Shown here: piece after piece, positions 8,648 to 23,517 of the stretch
How positions within the stretch are numbered: the stretch's first letter is position 1
Layout of the letters: every line of letters starts with the position of its first letter
IMG/VR virus record: IMGVR_UViG_3300010354_000397
Coordinates: 1 to 29,922 of that record
DNA: 29,922 nt
Source of the DNA: a virus
Reading direction: 5' to 3' (one strand)
The notes under the pieces: model-generated
Told to the model about the DNA's origin: nothing
Database searches by the model: none
The model's input: only the letters and a program-made list of their open reading frames with translations
Made by a program: the position numbers and the translations under genes

Positions 8648-11467
8648 ATGCCAATTGATAAATTTAGATTTGTAAGTCCTGGTGTTCAAGTTCAAGAAAT
8701 TGATAATTCACAAATTCCTAGACTACCAGATGCAATCGGTCCAGTAATTATTGGACGTTCTTTACGCGGACCAGTTATGCGTCCAGTAAAGGTTAATTCT
8801 TTCTCAGATTTCGTAGAAGTTTTCGGTGAACCAGTTGCTGGTGGTATTGGTGGCGATGTTTGGAGAGAGGGAAATAAAACCGCTCCAACATATGCTGCTT
8901 ATGCTGCACAAGCTTATTTAAGAAACTCTTCACCAGTTACATTTGTACGCTTGGCTGGTTATAAAAATCCAGATTCTGGAGAAACAGCTGCTGCTGGTGC
9001 TGCTGGTTGGTCAACACAAAACGCTTATGGCTTGTTTGTTATGCCAATTTCACAAAGCGCAGCAAATGTTTTCGCAACTGACGGCAAAGTTACTGCATCG
9101 CTTGCTGCCGTTGTTTATACTAATGGTGTTGCTGACTACGGTCTAACTGGAAAGCCATTAAGCGGAGCATTAGAAACAATTTCCGCTCAAAAAGGTAAAT
9201 GGGTCCGCGCCAATGGACCAAACTTAGAATTTAAATTAAGTGTTCACGATAATACTGTCGGTGGTGCATCACTAAAAACAGTCAATTTTGACACAAATTC
9301 AAAAAATTATATTAGAACAGCTTTAAACACAAATCCAGTATTTACAAATGATAAAATTGTTGAAGCCAAAGAAGATTATTTCTTAGGTGAAACATTTAGA
9401 ACTTGGGTAGAAGAAAATATACCAAGCTTTACTGGTTCACAAAATTTTGCTGGTATTCTTCTAAGATTGGATAATAATACAGTAGATTTTGCTAATCATT
9501 TAGTTGAAGCAGAAGATGCTTCAAGCGGTTGGGTTGTAAGCCAACACAAAGGAACTGGTTCAGCGTTTGTAAAAGATGGAACAACTGGCGAATACCCAGT
9601 TCAAAAATTGTTTAAATTTGTTGGTTTAACAGAAGGCGAATGGAATAGCCAAAATGTTAAAATTTCAATTGAAGACATTAAAGAGCCACCAAATGAATAT
9701 GTAAAATATGGTTCGTTTACAGTTTCCGTCAGAAAATTAGATGATAATGATTTAACACCTCAATATCTAGAAAGATTCACAAATGTTTCTCTAGATCCTT
9801 CATCTGAAAGCTTTATTGCTAAAGCAATTGGTGATAAATATACAGAATGGAACTATGAAAAACAATTGTTTGAAGAATATGGAACATATGATAATAAATC
9901 AAAATTTATTCGTGTAGAAATGAACCAAGATGTAGAAAATGGTTTAGTTGATACAGACTTAGTGCCATTTGGTTTCTATGGACCAGCTCAATTACCAGAA
10001 GTCGCTGTTTCTGGAAATAACTCTGAAGTTGCAGCTGGAGTTACTGGCTTCTTCTACGATACTGCGGTATCAGGCAACTCTTTGTTTACTGCAAGCTTTG
10101 CTTTGCCAACATTACCATTACTAGAAAGCGCCTCACAAACCCCAGTTCCTGGTTTATCTTCTATTTATTGGGGCCTAAAGACAAACTACGGTACAGTTAA
10201 AAAACACAATAAAGATTTGGTTGATTATTTAAGACCATATCCAAAAAGCTGGTCAGTTACAAAACCATCTTTCTTATTTACATTAGATGACGTAAGTGGT
10301 TCTGTCAGCGGTTCAACCTTAGTTGCCTCTGGTGGTGCTTATTGGGCAGAAGGTAATAGAGCTTCTGGTAAATCATTAACTAGCTATAATGGCAATCTAT
10401 TAACATCATCAAACGGATCAAGATTGGTTTTGTCAACTTTCAATAAGTTTACAATGCCATTGGTTAACGGATCAGACGGTGTAGATATTACAGAAAAAGA
10501 TCCATTCAACAGAAGAGTTCTAGCTGATGAAACACAACTAACAAGCTATGCATACAACAGCCTAAAAGTAGCGGTTGAATCAATTGCAGACCCAGAAGTT
10601 GTTGAAATGAATCTTGCAACAATTCCAGGTGTTGATAACGAAGCAATCACGGGAATGTTGCTTGATAAATGTGAAGCTCGCGGTGACGCATTAGCAATTA
10701 TCGATCTAAAGGGCGATTACGTCCCAGAAGAAGGTAAAGAATCAGCTACTACAAAAGCTTCTGCTCGTAAGCCAGTTGTAGCTGATGCAATTGCAAATCT
10801 AAAGAACCGTGCAATTAATAGTAGCTATGGTTGTGCATTTTTCCCATGGGTACTAGTTCGCGACAACTTAAACAACAATACTGTTTGGGTTCCACCATCA
10901 GTTGCTGCTTTAGGAACATTCTCAAGTTCACAACGCAGAACAGAATTATGGTTTGCTCCAGCAGGATTTAATCGCGGTGGATTAACAGAAGGTTCAGCAG
11001 GATTACCAGTTCTACAAACTGCTCTAAGATTATCTTCAAAAGATCGTGATGCTCTATACGAAGCAAACATCAATCCAATTGCAACATTCCCAAGTGAAGG
11101 AATTGTTATCTTTGGACAAAAGACACTACAAGTAACTCCAAGTGCATTGGATCGCATCAATGTTCGCCGTTTGATGATTTACTTGAAGAAAGAAATTAGC
11201 AGATTTGCTTCGGGCGTATTGTTTGATCCAAATATCCAAACAACTTGGAAGGGCTTTACTAATTTAGCAGAGCCATTCCTAGCGAGTGTTAAATCAAGAT
11301 TTGGTTTGAGCGATTATAGACTAATCTTAGACGAAACAACAACAACGCCAGAACTTGTTGATCGTAACATTGTATATGCTAAGATTCTATTGAAGCCAAC
11401 ACGCGCAATTGAATTTATTGCAATTGATTTCGTGATTACGAATACTGGTGCATCATTTAACGATTAA
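8648..11467 (+). CDS. Tail sheath protein, gp18-like
   Basis: A 939-residue contractile tail sheath subunit. The N-terminus (FVSPGVQVQEIDNSQIP) and the following IGPVIIGRSLRGP are the hallmark opening of sheath proteins, and YAAYAAQAYLRNSSPVTFVR belongs to the first conserved domain. The conserved C-terminal domain spans about residues 690-939 and includes the ATFPSEGIVIFGQKTL segment, then RRLMIYLKKEI, FDPNIQTTWKGF, and a final strand used for subunit linkage. It is much longer than T4 gp18 (659 residues); the extra length lies in the middle (about residues 120-640), as expected for surface-exposed insertions. The ribosome site is AAGGAGA. The gene is followed by a 13-bp hairpin before the tube gene. 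Confidence 0.93.
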   Translation: MPIDKFRFVSPGVQVQEIDNSQIPRLPDAIGPVIIGRSLRGPVMRPVKVNSFSDFVEVFGEPVAGGIGGDVWREGNKTAPTYAAYAAQAYLRNSSPVTFVRLAGYKNPDSGETAAAGAAGWSTQNAYGLFVMPISQSAANVFATDGKVTASLAAVVYTNGVADYGLTGKPLSGALETISAQKGKWVRANGPNLEFKLSVHDNTVGGASLKTVNFDTNSKNYIRTALNTNPVFTNDKIVEAKEDYFLGETFRTWVEENIPSFTGSQNFAGILLRLDNNTVDFANHLVEAEDASSGWVVSQHKGTGSAFVKDGTTGEYPVQKLFKFVGLTEGEWNSQNVKISIEDIKEPPNEYVKYGSFTVSVRKLDDNDLTPQYLERFTNVSLDPSSESFIAKAIGDKYTEWNYEKQLFEEYGTYDNKSKFIRVEMNQDVENGLVDTDLVPFGFYGPAQLPEVAVSGNNSEVAAGVTGFFYDTAVSGNSLFTASFALPTLPLLESASQTPVPGLSSIYWGLKTNYGTVKKHNKDLVDYLRPYPKSWSVTKPSFLFTLDDVSGSVSGSTLVASGGAYWAEGNRASGKSLTSYNGNLLTSSNGSRLVLSTFNKFTMPLVNGSDGVDITEKDPFNRRVLADETQLTSYAYNSLKVAVESIADPEVVEMNLATIPGVDNEAITGMLLDKCEARGDALAIIDLKGDYVPEEGKESATTKASARKPVVADAIANLKNRAINSSYGCAFFPWVLVRDNLNNNTVWVPPSVAALGTFSSSQRRTELWFAPAGFNRGGLTEGSAGLPVLQTALRLSSKDRDALYEANINPIATFPSEGIVIFGQKTLQVTPSALDRINVRRLMIYLKKEISRFASGVLFDPNIQTTWKGFTNLAEPFLASVKSRFGLSDYRLILDETTTTPELVDRNIVYAKILLKPTRAIEFIAIDFVITNTGASFND

Positions 11468-11530: not shown

Positions 11531-12115
11531 ATGGCATTTTGGAGTCAAGTTGGATCAGAGCCTATCAGACAACATAGATGGTATGTAGATTTTGGGTCTG
11601 GTAAAAATTTACAAGACATGGTTTTTGCTTTAAAAAAAGTAAGTAGACCAAAAGCAAAAATTGGTTCTGTACAACATAAATATTTAAATCATTTTTTCAA
11701 TTACCCAGGTAGATTAGAGTGGGAAGATATTAGCATGAGTTTTGCTGCGGTTACGCAACCAAATGCTTCTAAAAAATTAATGGCTTTGCTTAAACAGGCT
11801 GGATATGGTGTACCATCGGCGGCGAACGGCGGCGTCGAGCGGTCTACAATTGGAAAAGAAAAATTTGTTAGTGCGCTTGGAGAGTTTGAAATTTTCTGTA
11901 TAGATCCAGACGGTGCAACAAATGAAAAATGGAAAATTCATAGGCCATTTTTTACCTCGGTACAATTTGGTGATTTAGACTACGCCAATGAAGACATTGT
12001 TGAAATTCAAACAACTGTAAAATACGATTGGGCTGAGTTGGCATCTGCAACAGATCCAAATCCTAATGATAAAGCTCCAGGTAATTCTCCAAATGGTAAT
12101 AAAATAGTACCATAA
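11531..12115 (+). CDS. Tail tube protein, gp19-like
   Basis: A 194-residue tube subunit of the T4 gp19 family. It opens with MAFW and EPIRQHRWYVDF, then FALKKVSRP and the YPGRLEWEDISMSF strand, and ends in the FGDLDYANEDIVEIQTTVKY beta pair characteristic of the family. Hexamer rings of this protein form the inner tube ejected through the contracting sheath. The ribosome site TTAGGAG precedes the ATG. A paralogue follows at 12131. Residues 105-115 (NGGVERSTIG) lie in what is probably a surface loop. Confidence 0.9.
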   Translation: MAFWSQVGSEPIRQHRWYVDFGSGKNLQDMVFALKKVSRPKAKIGSVQHKYLNHFFNYPGRLEWEDISMSFAAVTQPNASKKLMALLKQAGYGVPSAANGGVERSTIGKEKFVSALGEFEIFCIDPDGATNEKWKIHRPFFTSVQFGDLDYANEDIVEIQTTVKYDWAELASATDPNPNDKAPGNSPNGNKIVP

Positions 12116-12130
12116 TTATAATATTATATA

Positions 12131-12649
12131 ATGTCTTTTTGGACAGATCCAAAATTTAAAGAACCCCTACGTCAGCATCGTTGGTATTTAAAATTCAACG
12201 ATGCTGATTTAGACGTTTATACGTTTGCATTAAAAGAATGTAAAAAGCCAGAGTATGAAATAAACATAACAGAGCACAGACTATTAACACATACAATAAA
12301 ATTTCCTGGTCTTTTAAAATGGAAGCCAATTGATGTTAAAATAGCTTCTGTTGTTAGCACAAGCGCTGATGGAAAAATAGTTGGTAGTGTAAACGAAACG
12401 GTAGAAAATTTTGTTTCTAAATTTGGTTATAATGATCCAAATTTTAGTCATCAAGAAATACAAAAAAATAATATAGGTGTAAATTTTGAACTTTATCAAA
12501 TAGATGAAGATGGAAAAAGATTAGAACTCTGGTTAATATATAATCCATTAATTGCTAGTGTTACTTATGGTAATCTTAGTTACGAAAATGAAGGAATAAT
12601 GGACGTAAGCTTAAATATTAACTATGATTATGCTAAACTTATAAAATAG
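12131..12649 (+). CDS. Second tail-tube paralogue (gp19-like), probably a minor tube or baseplate-tube protein
   Basis: A 172-residue protein clearly homologous to its upstream neighbour: MSFW and EPLRQHRWYLKF at the start, FALKECKKPEYE, FPGLLKWKPIDVKIASV in the middle, and YGNLSYENEGIMDVSLNINY at the end, all in the same order. The start codon has no Shine-Dalgarno sequence; the 15 bases between the genes are only A and T. That suggests much weaker translation than the main tube. In T4, gp48, gp54 and gp3 are low-copy proteins related to or capping the tube, so a tube initiator or terminator is the likely role. This is an inference. Confidence 0.8.
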   Translation: MSFWTDPKFKEPLRQHRWYLKFNDADLDVYTFALKECKKPEYEINITEHRLLTHTIKFPGLLKWKPIDVKIASVVSTSADGKIVGSVNETVENFVSKFGYNDPNFSHQEIQKNNIGVNFELYQIDEDGKRLELWLIYNPLIASVTYGNLSYENEGIMDVSLNINYDYAKLIK

Positions 12650-12680: not shown

Positions 12681-13538
12681 ATGAGAAATAATGAAGAACG
12701 TTTTGGAGCAAATCCATTATTGCAAGATGCGTCACCAGTTCAACAAATAATCCAACAACAAATGCAACCTCAAGGAACTCCGCTGGAATTTATGGTTCCA
12801 ACGGAATTTGTTGATTTGCCGTCAAAAGGTAAATTTTATCCTGCTGGACATCCACTAAGAGGCAAGGATACAGTTGAAGTCAAACAAATGACAGCAAAAG
12901 AAGAAGATTTGCTTACGTCAAAAACCCTATTAAAAAAAGGTGTTGTTCTTGACCGACTGATCCAAGCCCTTGTAACAGATAAAACTATAGATACCGACTC
13001 TTTAACGATAGAAGATCGCAACGCTATTATTATCTCAGCAAGAATCGCTGCATACGGCCCAGAATACGCAACATCTGTTACTTGTCCATCATGCACACAA
13101 AAAAGTAAATATGCATTTAATTTATTAGAAAAAGTACCAAAAGAACCAGAAGAAGAAGTTCTTCACCAAATTCATGAAGATGGAACTTTTACTGTTGTTC
13201 TGCCAAAAACAAAATGGACTGTTGTTTGTAGAGCTTTAAGTGGCCGTGATGAAAAAACAATCATGAGTATGACCGAAGCTAAAAAGAAATCTCAAAACGA
13301 CTCAATGTTTTTAGATCAATTAAAATTGATGGTTGTTTCAATTCAGGGAGTTACAGCCAGAAGCACAGTTGACGTAGCGCTATCATCATTACCAGCGGTT
13401 GATTCACGTTTCTTAAGAACCCAATACCAAAAAATTGTTGTGCCATTTGATATGAAACAAAATTTTTCATGTTCACAATGCGAATTTGAAACAATTTTGG
13501 AGGTTCCGCTGACGGCAGACTTTTTTTGGCCTAAATGA
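12681..13538 (+). CDS. Tail assembly chaperone, gp26-like, frame-0 product
   Basis: A 285-residue protein resembling the T4 gp26 baseplate-hub family: after a Gln-rich N-terminus, residues 38-80 read FMVPTEFVDLPSKGKFYP and then VEVKQMTAKEEDLLTS, the family's typical opening. Two CxxC pairs (C135/C138 and C264/C267) could bind zinc. Its position directly before the tape measure is that of tail assembly chaperones, which in many phages are made in two forms by programmed frameshifting. Here the frame ends at TGA 13536, ten bases after a run of seven T, while a second frame stays open to 13710. The start follows AAGAAAGCG and is not strongly marked. Confidence 0.8.
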   Translation: MRNNEERFGANPLLQDASPVQQIIQQQMQPQGTPLEFMVPTEFVDLPSKGKFYPAGHPLRGKDTVEVKQMTAKEEDLLTSKTLLKKGVVLDRLIQALVTDKTIDTDSLTIEDRNAIIISARIAAYGPEYATSVTCPSCTQKSKYAFNLLEKVPKEPEEEVLHQIHEDGTFTVVLPKTKWTVVCRALSGRDEKTIMSMTEAKKKSQNDSMFLDQLKLMVVSIQGVTARSTVDVALSSLPAVDSRFLRTQYQKIVVPFDMKQNFSCSQCEFETILEVPLTADFFWPK

Positions 13539-13710
13539 TGAATATCAACAGGGTGTTTATGAACAATTTTTTTATTTGAAATATTATGGTGGGTTCTCAC
13601 TTTTTGAAAGTTATAACTTACCAGTTGCTCTTAGGAAATGGTTTGTAGAAAAACTAGTAGATCAGTTAAAAGAAGAAAATGATGCAATGAAGAAAGCATC
13701 AAAGAAATAA
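13513..13710 (+). CDS. Frameshift extension of the tail assembly chaperone
   Basis: This frame, +1 (or -2) relative to the gp26-like gene, is open from 13513 to TAA 13710 and has no usable ATG start: the first in-frame ATG is at 13687, and a TTG at 13576 has no ribosome site. Reading across T7 at 13521-13527 gives a protein of 342-343 residues whose last 60 contain YQQGVYEQFFYLKYYGGFS, then YNLPVALRKWFVEKLVDQL and a Lys-rich tail. The LP-x-x-LR-x-W/F-x-x-x-L pattern is typical of post-frameshift domains of tail assembly chaperones. A base error in the T run is the alternative explanation. Confidence 0.65.
   Translation, partial: RQTFFGLNDEYQQGVYEQFFYLKYYGGFSLFESYNLPVALRKWFVEKLVDQLKEENDAMKKASKK
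13518..13538 (+). promoter_or_regulatory. Probable programmed frameshift site (T7 run)
   Basis: The bases GAC-TTT-TTT-TGG-CCT-AAA-TGA in frame 0 include seven consecutive T (13521-13527). A +1 or -2 slip here enters the frame that stays open to 13710. The overlap in which the switch must occur is only 13513-13538. Mu-type -2 and Gram-positive phage +1 shifts at this gene position are known. Confidence 0.6.
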
Positions 13711-13715
13711 TGAAG

Positions 13716-13744
13716 AGAGCGGGTATAAAGCCCGCTCTTTTTTT
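13716..13744 (+). terminator. Intrinsic terminator after the tail assembly chaperone
   Basis: AGAGCGGG (13716-13723) pairs perfectly with CCCGCTCT (13731-13738) around TATAAAG, followed by a run of T to 13744. It begins six bases after the TAA of the frameshift extension, which supports that frame as the true gene end. Confidence 0.92.
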
Positions 13745-13757
13745 ATTCTGTCTCTAA

Positions 13758-13766
13758 TTATTTATT
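13758..13766 (+). promoter_or_regulatory. Candidate late promoter element (TTATTTATT)
   Basis: TTATTTATT lies 23 bases upstream of the tape measure ATG and directly after a terminator. It differs by one base from the CTATTTAT core seen before other virion genes. Confidence 0.35.
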
Positions 13767-13789: not shown

Positions 13790-16700
13790 ATGGCTGATGA
13801 ATCAAAACAGGCGCGTCAAAAGATTGACGAAATAGCTGCAATTACTGGCGATGTAAGAAGAGCAACTGAAACAATTGAAGAGTATCTTAATAGAATTGTG
13901 CCATTAGCTTCTAGCATTTCTTCTATCGATAAACAAAGAGTAGATAATTTAAGAGAACAAGCGAGATTGGCACAATTAGCAGCTGAAACAAGGGAACAAG
14001 AAAAAAAAGATTTAGAGGCAGAGCTCATTTCAGAAAAAGATATTTTAAAACAAGCAGAGCTACAATTACAACTTGAACAACTCAAACTACAAACAATGAA
14101 AGACACGGAGGGCATAACAAGACTTGCCATCGACGCTCAAAAAAATATGATTGAAAATGCGGAGAATCACTTAGAAGCAATTATTAGAACAAACAAACAA
14201 CAAGATGAAATGTTTAGAAAGGTTGATAAAGTAACTGGTGGGTATGCAAGCCAAATAACACAACTATTTGGTATTGGTAGAAATCTTAGTATTCAAGAAG
14301 CTGTGATGGAAAGAATTGGAGATCTTTTCAAACAAGTTCTTTCATCTAATATGGAATTTGCTCAAACTACTGGGCGTATTGCAGAAAGAACTGCAAGTTT
14401 TGGAATTGGATTTGCACAATTTGGTGTTAGTTTTGATAAATTAAATAAATCAGCTATTGAACTTTATACAAGTATGAGTTCATTTTCTGACTTGAACGTA
14501 GAAGTTCAGGAAAGACTAGCAGTTTCTGCAACAAAATTAGGCAATATTGGAATCGCTGCTGGTGTAACTGGTAAAAACTTAGACATCTTAACAAAAGGCT
14601 TAAAGATGTCTTCGGATGAAGCAATTAAAACCAACGAAGAAATTGCTAGAGCAGCAATTGGTGCTGGTATTGCTCCAAGCAAAATGGCAGAAGAGTTTGG
14701 TGCAAATATATCCAAAATTCAACAATATGGTAAACAAGGTATCCAAATTTATATCGACATGCAAAAACAAGCAAAAAGCTTGGGAATGGATTTATCATCA
14801 TTAAACCAAATAGTTGGAGATCAGTTTGATACTTTTGAAAGCTCTGCAAGAGCCGCTGGCCGTTATAACGCTATTTTAGGTGGTAATTTCCTAAATTCAG
14901 TCGAGATGTTAAATGCAACTGAGAGCGAGCGTGTTGTTCTATTAAAGAAATCTTTTGAAGAAAGCGGGAAAAATTTTGATTCGCTATCAAAATATGAGAA
15001 AAAAGCAATTGCAACAAGCCTCGGTATTCAAGACTTAAACGAAGCAAGTAAACTATTTGGCAAAACGTCTACTGAATTAGAGACTGATATGCGTAAGCGT
15101 TCTGCAACCGAAGAAGAGATGGCTAAAGCACAAAGAGAAGCAACGGATGTTATGGAACAATTAAAAAATATATTTAATTTATTGCTTATAGCCGTAAGAC
15201 CAGTTGTAGAAATTTTTAAAATTCTTATTAATGTTGTTGCAATGCTATCAGATGGAATAATGTTTTTACTAAATTTTGCTATTAAACCAATTATAGCGGT
15301 TGGTGAATTTTTTTATGAAATAATAGGAAAAATAGTAGACGCCGTTGGATTATGGAGAATTGCGCTCGGTGTTGTGTCTTATGCTTTAATAGTATACAAC
15401 GTGCAAATGAATGCGGCAATTCTTTCAACTATAAGATTTATAGGGCAAATGATAACTGCGACTATAAATATTATTTCTCTCGCGGCTACACTTACTGTAA
15501 ATGCTGTAGTTGCTTTGTATAGCTATGCTACCACACTGCTAGCCAGTGCAATACCAGCTACGCTTGCATTTATTGCCTCCTTGAGAGCCATGGGTCTTAG
15601 CGGAGTTATCTCCGCTGTTGTTTCTGGTATTGGTGCTATGATAGTTGCCTTTAGAGGCATGAATATTGCCATGCAAAGTGGCGTAATTGGATTAATTATT
15701 CTTTTTGCTTCTGCTCTTTATATGGTTTATGAATGGCTAATAAAACCACATTCACCACCTTTATATATTGCTTTAGGTCTATTGCCACCAATTTTCTTTA
15801 TGATAGGTAGGGCGTCGGATGCTTCTGCTAATTCATTATTAAAAGTTGGAGCAGCGTTCCTAATGATGGGTATCGGCGTTGGTATTGCAGCTTTAGGTTT
15901 GGCTAAATTAGTTGAAGCCTTTAGCCAACTATCTGGCGAACAAGCGCTTGCTGCTCTTGGAGCAGTAATAGCATTAATGGTGATGATGGTAGCGCCATTA
16001 ATTTTGATCACAATAGCTGGCAGCGCAGCTACTATACCTTTATTAGCATTAGGGGCGGCGTTCCTTATGATGGGCGTTGGTATAGGTATTGCAGCAGCTG
16101 GCTTATCTTTATTGGTTACTTCTTTTGGAGTATTAGCAGATCCTAAAGTTTTAGCTGGAATGATTGGTTTTGTTGGTACACTATATGCGCTAGTTCCAGC
16201 GTTAACAACATTAGCCTTACTTTCACCAGCAATATTACTATTATCAGTTGGAGTTAGCGTATTATCGGTATCATTGTTGGTCATGTCTGCCGCTTTTGTA
16301 GTTATTGGAGCTGCAATTACAATAGCATCAGTTGGAATAAAAACAATTATAGAATCGTTTCAAAAATTAACAGATGAAAAAATATTAAAAGGCGGTCTAG
16401 CGTTTGTTGGATTATTATATTTAATGACACCAGCATTATTTGCTCTTTCGGTCGCGTCCCCTGGGATTTTAGTTTTATCAGCCGCATTCTTATTATTATC
16501 TGTCGGTATTGTTGGTATAAGTGCTGGTCTTTTAATAATTTCTGTTGCATTAGAAAAACTAGTAAGTTTCTTAGGACAATTAAAAAATATCGCGGACGGA
16601 CTTCCAACAGCAATGCTAAAATTAGCAGCCTCATTTGGAATTTTAACTATTTCAATGTTAGGAATTATGGCTCTTGGTGCTGCTGGAGCAACTGGATTTG

Positions 16701-17125
16701 GAATGATTGCATTTGTTTCTGGCTTGGGCATGATGACTACTGCTATATTATTATTAGCAGCCGCTTTAGACGAAATACCAGAAGGAAAGACTGTAGCGTT
16801 AAGCACGTTAAACGAAACTTTAACGACTGCAAAAACAATAACAGAGGATAACATAAAACCAACAAAAGACTTTATAGGCGCGGTAAAAGAATATTATAAA
16901 TTCCAGGCAGATTCAAAAGATGCAGATAAGGATGCTCTTGTTGCAGCGCTAAAACAAGTGATTGGGGAGCAAAACAAATCAGCCGAAGAAGGACAAGGAG
17001 AAGGAACACCAATTAAACTTGTTATATCTGGTAATGATTTCGCAGAAGCAATCAATGGTGGCGGAAAGAGCGTTAATGGATTATTAAGCGGTCCAAGATC
17101 GTTTAGAAGGGCAGTCAGAGGATAA
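13790..17125 (+). CDS. Tail tape measure protein
   Basis: A 1111-residue protein with the usual plan of tape measures: an N-terminal helical, Glu/Gln/Lys-rich coiled coil (about residues 15-145), a Gly/Ala/Ser-rich helical middle, and a long hydrophobic part (about 455-990). The hydrophobic part holds repeated blocks such as GAAFLMMGVGIGIAAAGL. By the common rule of about 0.15 nm of tail per residue, it would set a tail of roughly 165 nm, longer than T4. It follows the chaperone gene, which would coat it during assembly. The ribosome site is weak (TTAGGT). The C-terminus is short and Gly/Arg-rich. Confidence 0.9.
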   Translation: MADESKQARQKIDEIAAITGDVRRATETIEEYLNRIVPLASSISSIDKQRVDNLREQARLAQLAAETREQEKKDLEAELISEKDILKQAELQLQLEQLKLQTMKDTEGITRLAIDAQKNMIENAENHLEAIIRTNKQQDEMFRKVDKVTGGYASQITQLFGIGRNLSIQEAVMERIGDLFKQVLSSNMEFAQTTGRIAERTASFGIGFAQFGVSFDKLNKSAIELYTSMSSFSDLNVEVQERLAVSATKLGNIGIAAGVTGKNLDILTKGLKMSSDEAIKTNEEIARAAIGAGIAPSKMAEEFGANISKIQQYGKQGIQIYIDMQKQAKSLGMDLSSLNQIVGDQFDTFESSARAAGRYNAILGGNFLNSVEMLNATESERVVLLKKSFEESGKNFDSLSKYEKKAIATSLGIQDLNEASKLFGKTSTELETDMRKRSATEEEMAKAQREATDVMEQLKNIFNLLLIAVRPVVEIFKILINVVAMLSDGIMFLLNFAIKPIIAVGEFFYEIIGKIVDAVGLWRIALGVVSYALIVYNVQMNAAILSTIRFIGQMITATINIISLAATLTVNAVVALYSYATTLLASAIPATLAFIASLRAMGLSGVISAVVSGIGAMIVAFRGMNIAMQSGVIGLIILFASALYMVYEWLIKPHSPPLYIALGLLPPIFFMIGRASDASANSLLKVGAAFLMMGIGVGIAALGLAKLVEAFSQLSGEQALAALGAVIALMVMMVAPLILITIAGSAATIPLLALGAAFLMMGVGIGIAAAGLSLLVTSFGVLADPKVLAGMIGFVGTLYALVPALTTLALLSPAILLLSVGVSVLSVSLLVMSAAFVVIGAAITIASVGIKTIIESFQKLTDEKILKGGLAFVGLLYLMTPALFALSVASPGILVLSAAFLLLSVGIVGISAGLLIISVALEKLVSFLGQLKNIADGLPTAMLKLAASFGILTISMLGIMALGAAGATGFGMIAFVSGLGMMTTAILLLAAALDEIPEGKTVALSTLNETLTTAKTITEDNIKPTKDFIGAVKEYYKFQADSKDADKDALVAALKQVIGEQNKSAEEGQGEGTPIKLVISGNDFAEAINGGGKSVNGLLSGPRSFRRAVRG

Positions 17126-22308: not shown

Positions 22309-23517
22309 ATGCTTTTTCAAACATTGGACGACAAAAAAGAATGCGTAGGAATCTACGCAGATAGTAAATTATTTTTTGATGAAATCCCGCAAAATTTAAC
22401 GGCATCTTGGAGTTATTCACCCTATTTAAAAGGGCAAGAAATCCAATATGCAAATTTATACTGTGAAGGCAAATCTCTTGATGAGATTTGTCCAGAACAT
22501 CTTCGCGATGAATGGACAGAAATCAAAACAAGATTAAAAGCCTTTATGTCTTCTTTTATTGAGGCAAAAGTTTCACTAGAAGAAAATTGCTTTTTTGATT
22601 TAACGCCACAAAGATTTTTGGAGAAGTATTGTGACATTAAAAACAAAATTACTCAACACGTATTTGACACTTATGAAAAACCACAAGAGTATAATTTTTA
22701 TCGTAGATTTAATGAGTTGCTTATCGACATTAAACATCGTGAGTTAAATCTAGATATTGAACAACTCAAAAATAATATATTAAGCGAACGGGATTTAACT
22801 TATTATCATCGCATGCGTGATGTAAGCAGAAATATTGAATACAACCTTTTTGGATCCATTACTGGACGTTTATCAATGAAAAAAGGAAGTTTTCCAATTC
22901 AAAGCTTCCAAAAACAATTTCGTAATGTCTTAAAACCGCACAACGATTGGTTTGTAGCATTTGATGTCAATGCAGCGGAGTTGAGAACGTCGCTCGCGCT
23001 TTTAAATTGTGTACAGCCGCAGGAGGATTTATATGAATGGATTGGGAAGAGCATTCTTGGAAATGTATCGCGAAACAACGCCAAGAAAATTGTCATTGAG
23101 TGGTTATACAATTCTAGTAATCCTATCTACCACCAATACGCTCAAAAACTCGATAATGTCTTTAAAAAAGATGCGTTAAAGCAACTTTATTGGGTAAATG
23201 GATACGTACACACTCCGTTTGGTCGTAAAATTGAAAGCGACGAGCATCATGCTATTCCATATTTAAACCAATCAACATTTATTGATCTTTTTCACAGACA
23301 AGCAATTAAAGTTGACGATTATCTACGGGATAAAAAAAGCTTTGTTGCTTTTTTGCTGCATGATGAATTTGTACTTGATATGACTGATGACGAAAAAGAG
23401 CATATTTTAGAGATTGCAAAAATTCTTCAAAATACACAGTTTGGACGATTTCTTTGTAACATTAAAGTTGGGCGTGATTATGGTAATATGAAGAAGCTAA
23501 ACCTGAAGGTAGAATAA
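22309..23517 (+). CDS. Compact family A DNA polymerase (polymerase domain only)
   Basis: A 402-residue family A (Pol I type) polymerase. Motif A is WFVAFDVNAAELRT with catalytic D219 and E224; a TGRLS motif lies at 185-189; motif B begins R255-N-N-A-K259; GYVHTPFGRK is at 298-307; motif C is LLHDEF with H351, D352, E353. No 3'-5' exonuclease domain with its acidic motifs was found in the N-terminal 150 residues, so this is the Klenow-type polymerase core alone, and any proofreading must be encoded elsewhere. In the finger helix, Ile263 occupies the place of Pol I F762 / T7 Y526, and Asn follows Tyr267 where Gly is usual. It follows the virion block with an AGAGGAAAT site. It may be the replicative polymerase or one half of a split one. 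Confidence 0.9.
   Translation: MLFQTLDDKKECVGIYADSKLFFDEIPQNLTASWSYSPYLKGQEIQYANLYCEGKSLDEICPEHLRDEWTEIKTRLKAFMSSFIEAKVSLEENCFFDLTPQRFLEKYCDIKNKITQHVFDTYEKPQEYNFYRRFNELLIDIKHRELNLDIEQLKNNILSERDLTYYHRMRDVSRNIEYNLFGSITGRLSMKKGSFPIQSFQKQFRNVLKPHNDWFVAFDVNAAELRTSLALLNCVQPQEDLYEWIGKSILGNVSRNNAKKIVIEWLYNSSNPIYHQYAQKLDNVFKKDALKQLYWVNGYVHTPFGRKIESDEHHAIPYLNQSTFIDLFHRQAIKVDDYLRDKKSFVAFLLHDEFVLDMTDDEKEHILEIAKILQNTQFGRFLCNIKVGRDYGNMKKLNLKVE

What the first reader, a model, noticed from the sequence alone, without database searches (positions are those of the whole stretch)
12681..13710. gp26-like protein joined to a 60-residue extension by a probable programmed frameshift: a cryptic tail assembly chaperone
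Seen: the frame-0 gene stops at 13536, just after seven T (13521-13527). The +1/-2 frame is open from 13513 to 13710, has no credible own start, and ends six bases before a strong terminator. The extension contains NLPVALRKWFVEKL, a pattern typical of the second part of frameshifted tail chaperones. Known: tail assembly chaperones (lambda G/GT, Mu, SPP1) lie just before the tape measure and use -1, -2 or +1 shifts. T4 has separate gp26 and gp51. Inference: in this lineage the gp26 family acts as the chaperone and the short form is extended by slippage.
Basis: partly seen in the sequence, partly recalled or inferred. Interest (0 to 1): 0.8.

Follow-up and report, generated by a model that had tools for sequence, protein, structure and literature searches.

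The report
Frameshifted tail-assembly chaperone, gp26 family
This phage gene for a tail-building helper protein appears to make a short and a long product because some ribosomes skip one base at a conserved U-rich site, a trick kept by hundreds of related phages although the best-known member of the family, T4, uses two separate genes instead.

Summary
The 285-codon gene at 12681-13538 belongs to Pfam PF12322, the family of T4 gp26 and gp51. It overlaps an out-of-frame 60-codon extension across GAC-TTT-TTT-TGG, just before the tape-measure gene. All 78 viral-contig relatives that reach the site keep it (55 distinct alleles, 45-64% protein identity), so it is not a base error. Their extensions show protein-coding substitution. 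Seven alleles have TTCTTTT, and a sister clade has TTT-CTT-TGG. These forms cannot support slippage on a seven-T run or a general -2 shift. The best model is a +1 ribosomal shift by tRNA-Phe, UUU to UUY, usually with UGG waiting. A wider survey found the extension out of frame in 265 of 266 classifiable loci: +1 in this clade, Flavobacterium, Microcystis and Streptococcus phages; -1 at U-UUU-UUC in cyanophages and others. T4 gp51 carries the extension domain at its C-terminus, and two bacterial injection-system loci have both domains in one ORF. That gp26/gp51 are the tail assembly chaperones of T4-like phages was already proposed (Vladimirov 2022, full text not available here). What seems new is the conserved +1 signal and the switch of direction within one gene family. 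No expression data exist.

The parts
12681..13538 (+). short form (TAC-N): gp26-family protein, 285 aa, ending ADFFWPK-stop
   Evidence: PF12322 E=2.8e-14, phrog_150 'baseplate hub' E=3.8e-16; AlphaFold mean pLDDT 80
13499..13503 (+). GGAGG, Shine-Dalgarno-like, 20 nt before the P-site TTT; possible stimulator
   Evidence: GAG codon in 55/55 alleles against 21% background; lineage-specific, absent at this place in Mel-JY01
13518..13529 (+). shift site GAC TTT TTT TGG; proposed +1 slip of peptidyl-tRNA-Phe on UUU with UGG in the A site
   Evidence: conserved in 78/78 relatives that reach it; TTC-TTT-TGG in 7 of 56 alleles; UUU-Y present in 128/128 distinct +1 alleles of three clades plus two single phages
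13528..13710 (+). out-of-frame extension (TAC-C), 60 codons + TAA; joined by +1 shift gives ...ADFF-GLNDEYQ..., about 345 aa
   Evidence: codon-position substitution bias; invariant G1, L2, G21, Y29, P32, L35, R36 of the extension across three clades; predicted as helices
13712..13742 (+). intrinsic terminator-like hairpin + T run
   Evidence: hairpin-plus-T sequences at the same place in most relatives (read by eye)
13754..13761 (+). CTAATTAT, possible late-promoter element before the tape measure gene
   Evidence: CTA[A/T]TTA at the same place in most listed relatives (read by eye); further copies in the window
13790..17125 (+). tape measure protein, 1111 aa (by position and size)
   Evidence: same place as the annotated tape measure in Flavobacterium phage immuto; no family hit of its own
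12131..12649 (+). tail tube protein, second of two gp19-like genes
   Evidence: phrog_4542 E=1.9e-14
11531..12115 (+). tail tube protein, first of two gp19-like genes
   Evidence: phrog_4542 E=1.7e-18
8648..11467 (+). tail sheath protein, 939 aa
   Evidence: phrog_23 E=1.1e-70; PF17482

Best explanation
The locus encodes a tail assembly chaperone of the gp26/gp51 (PF12322) family in two forms. Most ribosomes read GAC-UUU-UUU-UGG-CCU-AAA-UGA and make the 285-residue short form. A minority, with tRNA-Phe on UUU in the P site and UGG waiting in the A site, slip one base forward (UUU to UUU, cognate re-pairing) and read on as GGC-CUA-AAU, making a long form of about 345 residues with a helical C-terminal domain. 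By analogy with lambda gpG/gpGT and P2 gpE/gpE+E', many short copies and few long copies would coat the tape measure, and the long form's extra domain would recruit tail tube subunits. Shown here: the conserved site, the conserved coding extension in the +1 frame, family membership, and gene position. Inferred: that shifting really occurs, its efficiency, the +1 mechanism, and the division of labour between the two forms.
For: Conservation of site and extension in 78/78 reachable relatives and in 7 more phage contigs binned with bacterial genomes; coding substitution pattern; no usable start codon before the conserved part of the window's extension. Direction: seven alleles with TTCTTTTGG, 11 of 12 LR756508-type alleles with only a four-T run, and 32 of 61 immuto-type alleles without any run of four T (TTT-CTT or TTT-CTA), while 128/128 have UUU followed by U or C. 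Function: PF12322; T4 gp26 and gp51 are both in PF12322 and are listed as hub assembly chaperones (PMC3004832); position between tube genes and tape measure; extension domain at the C-terminus of T4 gp51 (E=1.6e-6) and fused in frame to PF12322 in two injection-system loci; predicted-fold matches to 'baseplate hub assembly' proteins.
Against: No expression, proteomic or ribosome-profiling data. Similarity of the short form to the solved HK97 chaperone is not significant (2ob9, E=1.8, probability 0.28). The extension has no significant profile match to P2 E' or lambda T. The GGAGG element lies farther from the P site (20 nt) than in the classical prfB +1 signal (recalled, not looked up). T7 alleles alone would also permit -2 slippage.
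Confidence: 0.87

Rival explanations
1. The frames are one gene split by a homopolymer sequencing or assembly error.
For: A seven-T run is a classical error site, and one T fewer would join the frames.
Against: Same break in all 78 contigs that reach it, in cultured phage Mel-JY01 and in more distant clades, several without a long T run.
Confidence: 0.01
2. The shift is -2 (Mu-like) rather than +1.
For: The frame is the same; T7 lets tRNA-Phe re-pair two bases back; a GGAGG lies upstream as at backward-shift sites.
Against: Seven window-clade alleles (TTCTTTTGG) and all 12 LR756508-type alleles offer no same-residue -2 slip, while every +1 allele offers a UUU-Y +1 slip.
Confidence: 0.07
3. RNA polymerase slips on the T run and makes mRNAs of other lengths.
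For: T7 in 46 of 53 window-clade alleles.
Against: 52 of 128 distinct +1 alleles have no run of five or more T.
Confidence: 0.04
4. The extension is a separate small gene with its own start, as in cyanophage annotations of a small 'gp51'.
For: Some relatives have an ATG at extension codon 7; S-SCSM1 and Cygsa01 carry small ORFs annotated 'baseplate hub assembly catalyst'; L182 and L188 have an ATG just after the stop.
Against: The window and most close relatives have no start before the conserved GLxxEY block near the slip; two injection-system loci fuse both domains in one ORF.
Confidence: 0.04
5. The frameshift is real but both forms are structural parts of the baseplate hub, not chaperones.
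For: Annotations call the family baseplate hub; some T4 genetics placed gp26 in the hub (PMC3004832).
Against: gp51 is required for assembly but absent from the T4 particle (PMC3004832); gene position and the short/long pair match tail assembly chaperones.
Confidence: 0.08

Closest known systems
T4 gp26 and gp51 (PF12322), identified as tail assembly chaperones of T4-like phages (Vladimirov, Gautam, Davidson 2022, Virology 566:9; full text not held)
   Same: Same protein family; gp51 ends in the same extension domain; role before the tape measure.
   Different: T4 uses two separate genes on opposite strands and no frameshift; here one gene with a +1 shift.
Cyanophage (S-CAM8-type, Kyanoviridae) gp26 with out-of-frame extension
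   Same: Same family, same extension domain, overlap at the 3' end.
   Different: -1 at U-UUU-UUC instead of +1 at UUU-UGG. PMC12846349 cites Vladimirov 2022 for poly-T -1 signals in TAC-N genes of T4-like phages, so the -1 form may already be described.
Phage lambda gpG/gpGT and phage P2 gpE/gpE+E'
   Same: Short and long chaperone from one gene by a shift near its 3' end, just before the tape measure.
   Different: -1 shifts; no significant sequence similarity of the extension detected.
Haloarchaeal myovirus HSTV-2 tail chaperone (very likely +1; PMC5009743)
   Same: +1 direction in a tail assembly chaperone.
   Different: Archaeal host; homology and site not compared here.
DUF6760 (PF20546) next to or fused with PF12322 in bacterial contractile-injection loci
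   Same: Extension-like domain as C-terminal partner of a PF12322 domain.
   Different: In-frame fusion in two loci, separate overlapping ORF in a third.

Membership tests
Tail assembly chaperone (TAC) | gene lies between tail tube and tape measure genes | tested here: met
   tube genes 11531-12649 (phrog_4542); next gene 13790-17125 in the place of the annotated tape measure of immuto; the tape measure itself is assigned by position and size
Tail assembly chaperone (TAC) | conserved out-of-frame C-terminal extension near the 3' end with a conserved shift site | tested here: met
Tail assembly chaperone (TAC) | fold like a solved TAC (HK97, 2ob9) | tested here: inconclusive
   2ob9_B has the highest probability of the listed PDB matches (0.28, TM 0.50 over the target) but E=1.8
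Tail assembly chaperone (TAC) | extension homologous to P2 E' or lambda T | tested here: inconclusive
   no profile hit; only a weak chain: extension to DUF6760 (E=0.0014) to P2_GpE (E=0.014)
Tail assembly chaperone (TAC) | both forms bind tape measure/tube and are absent from the virion | not testable with these tools
   needs experiment
gp26/gp51 family PF12322 | profile match above gathering score | tested here: met
   53.8 bits against 24.5; T4 gp26 and gp51 also match
+1 programmed ribosomal frameshift | conserved site allowing P-site tRNA re-pairing one base forward | tested here: met
   UUU-Y in 128/128 distinct +1 alleles
+1 programmed ribosomal frameshift | measured production of the shifted protein | not testable with these tools
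   no expression data
-2 programmed frameshift (Mu-type) | site allows re-pairing two bases back in all members | tested here: not met
   7 of 53 window-clade and 12 of 12 LR756508-type alleles have no same-residue -2 slip

The most novel reading that the evidence does not exclude
Within one homologous chaperone gene, the same extension domain is reached by +1 slippage in one large branch, by -1 slippage in another, by a separately started ORF in a few members, by gene duplication in T4 and by in-frame fusion in contractile injection systems. The UUU-UGG site with upstream GGAGG/CCGC...GCGG elements would be a previously undescribed +1 signal, and T4 would be a derived loss rather than an exception.
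Probability: 0.65. Interest if true: 0.65.

Novelty: new variant of a known kind. Interest (0 to 1): 0.52.

Why it matters
T4 has been named the exception among long-tailed phages in not frameshifting its tail chaperone (PMC5009743). If this is right, frameshifting is the rule in the gp26/gp51 family surveyed here, and T4 replaced it by two genes. The family becomes a natural experiment on how the short-to-long ratio is set by different decoding tricks. It also supplies a conserved +1 site that can be tested in an ordinary E. coli reporter, and explains why these phages are annotated with a truncated 'baseplate hub' gene plus an orphan small ORF (Mel-JY01).

Tried and rejected
Base error: rejected by relatives. 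A -2 shift and transcriptional slippage: disfavoured by alleles without a long T run. Own start for the extension: rejected for the window, possible in L182, L188, S-SCSM1 and Cygsa01. Downstream stimulatory structure: no consistent one; a 4-bp CCGC/GCGG hairpin just upstream in one subgroup only. Solved-structure search by sequence: no relative. Homology of the extension to P2 E' and lambda T by profile: not detected. An HMM from +1 extensions alone does not hit T4 gp51; the one from -1 extensions does. The Vladimirov 2022 paper, which bears most on novelty, is not in the held library. DUF6760 has no paper in the library.

Full report
Observation. The window carries an ORF at 12681-13538 (285 aa) that ends ...ADFFWPK-stop. 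Seven T lie at 13521-13527. The frame one base forward is open from 13513 and stops at 13708-13710. The extension frame has only five codons between its upstream stop and the slip, none of them a start. A terminator-like hairpin follows at 13712-13742. The window is the whole of a 29,922-base virus record.

Identity. The short protein matches Pfam PF12322 (E=2.8e-14) and phrog_150 'baseplate hub'. T4 gp26 and gp51 both match PF12322. A published table lists both as hub assembly chaperones (PMC3004832). Upstream are two tail tube genes and a sheath gene; the next gene downstream, 1111 codons, lies where relatives have the tape measure.

Conservation. Eighty relatives were fetched from viral contigs. 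Seventy-eight reach the site, and all keep GA[C/A]-TT[T/C]-TTT-TGG followed by a +1-frame extension; two end before it. With the window there are 56 distinct alleles. Asp before the run is GAC in 55/55 (background 21%) and the Glu codon at -9 is GAG in 55/55 (background 21%); CCG follows in 47/56 (background 11%). Substitutions in the extension fall mainly on third positions of the +1 frame (16102/10379/32044), whereas the flank after its stop shows no preference (18313/18734/18483). This excludes a base error and indicates that the extension is under selection as protein in the +1 frame. These counts treat related alleles as separate.

Direction. Six scans of viral contigs plus cultured phages gave 274 family loci; 8 run off their contig, 1 shows no extension, and in 265 the extension lies out of frame. 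The window clade, the Flavobacterium immuto clade, the LR756508 clade, Mel-JY01 and a Streptococcus phage are +1 (175). Cyanophage-type loci are -1 at U-UUU-UUC (80, with S-SCSM1 an exception in the +1 frame with a possible start of its own). LR756511-type loci, Vibrio phage Bakedbeans and Cygsa01 are in the -1 frame, the last with a possible start of its own. L182 and L188 seem to have replaced the shift by a start codon after the stop. Among 128 distinct +1 alleles, all have UUU followed by U or C in the overlap, and 52 have no run of five or more T; 7 of 53 window-clade and all 12 LR756508-type alleles have no site for a same-residue -2 slip. The common denominator is forward re-pairing of tRNA-Phe from UUU to UUY, most often with UGG in the A site. 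Which of two possible UUU codons slips in the T7 alleles is not settled. Seven further contigs binned with bacterial genomes are also +1.

Tree. A tree of the short forms groups +1 and -1 loci strongly, with four changes of state among all groups, and places T4 and Aeromonas gp26 and gp51 together on the -1 side. Several long branches make the deepest joins uncertain, so the ancestral direction is not claimed.

The extension domain. A profile from -1 extensions finds T4 gp51 (E=1.6e-6 among T4 ORFs of that region) and not gp26; one from +1 extensions does not. In a joint alignment the matching part of gp51 is its C-terminal tail. Profile-profile comparison of +1 and -1 extensions gives E=1.4e-5, probability 80%. 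Ten of 28 extensions weakly match DUF6760 (best E=0.0014). In two bacterial genomes with contractile-injection-like gene order (sheath, tube) a single 255-codon ORF matches PF12322 and then DUF6760 (in the second the DUF6760 match is below the curated cut-off). [quoted passage not shown] DUF6760 in a third locus weakly matches Phage_P2_GpE (E=0.014); I take this as a lead only, because direct profile search against P2, Mu and lambda regions found nothing.

Structure. The short form folds with mean pLDDT 80. Against solved structures nothing is significant; the HK97 tail assembly chaperone 2ob9 is the entry with the highest probability in the list (0.28, E=1.8). Against predicted viral proteins the best named matches are annotated baseplate hub or hub assembly proteins. 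The extension is predicted helical.

Mechanism. I propose ribosomal +1 slippage producing a short and a long chaperone, acting like lambda gpG/gpGT on the tape measure and tube. The conserved GGAGG and CCG...GCG sequence upstream may stimulate pausing or slippage, but it is lineage-specific and its distance is unlike the prfB case (the latter from memory). Everything from actual slippage onward is inference.

Novelty. A review states that tail-chaperone frameshifting is widely conserved except in T4 (PMC5009743). The gp26/gp51 assignment as chaperones without frameshifting is published (Vladimirov 2022, known here only through citations in PMC10274946 and PMC12846349); the latter attributes poly-T -1 signals in T4-like chaperone genes to that paper. 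I found no report of the +1 branch in the searched library, which lacks most subscription journals. I therefore rate it a new variant of a known kind.

Noticed in passing
window 13754-13761; also 1220, 4401, 4767, 8593: CTA[A/T]TTA[A/T] occurs 27-55 nt before several gene starts and before the tape measure gene in most listed relatives; 9 copies on + against 2 on -. It may be the late promoter element of this phage group.
   Followed up: partly
L287:859-1623 and L288:859-1623 (Bacteroidota genomes): PF12322 and DUF6760 fused in one ORF next to tube- and sheath-like genes: DUF6760 may be the C-terminal domain of the tail chaperone of contractile injection systems.
   Followed up: partly
L089 (S-SCSM1), L091 (Cygsa01), L182, L188: Members whose extension may have its own start codon, i.e. 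apparent replacements of the frameshift.
   Followed up: partly
window 11531-12115 and 12131-12649: Two adjacent tail tube (gp19-like) paralogues, both matching phrog_4542.
   Followed up: no
window 22309-23517: 402-aa protein that by eye resembles the polymerase part of a family A DNA polymerase and seems too short to hold an exonuclease domain as well.
   Followed up: no
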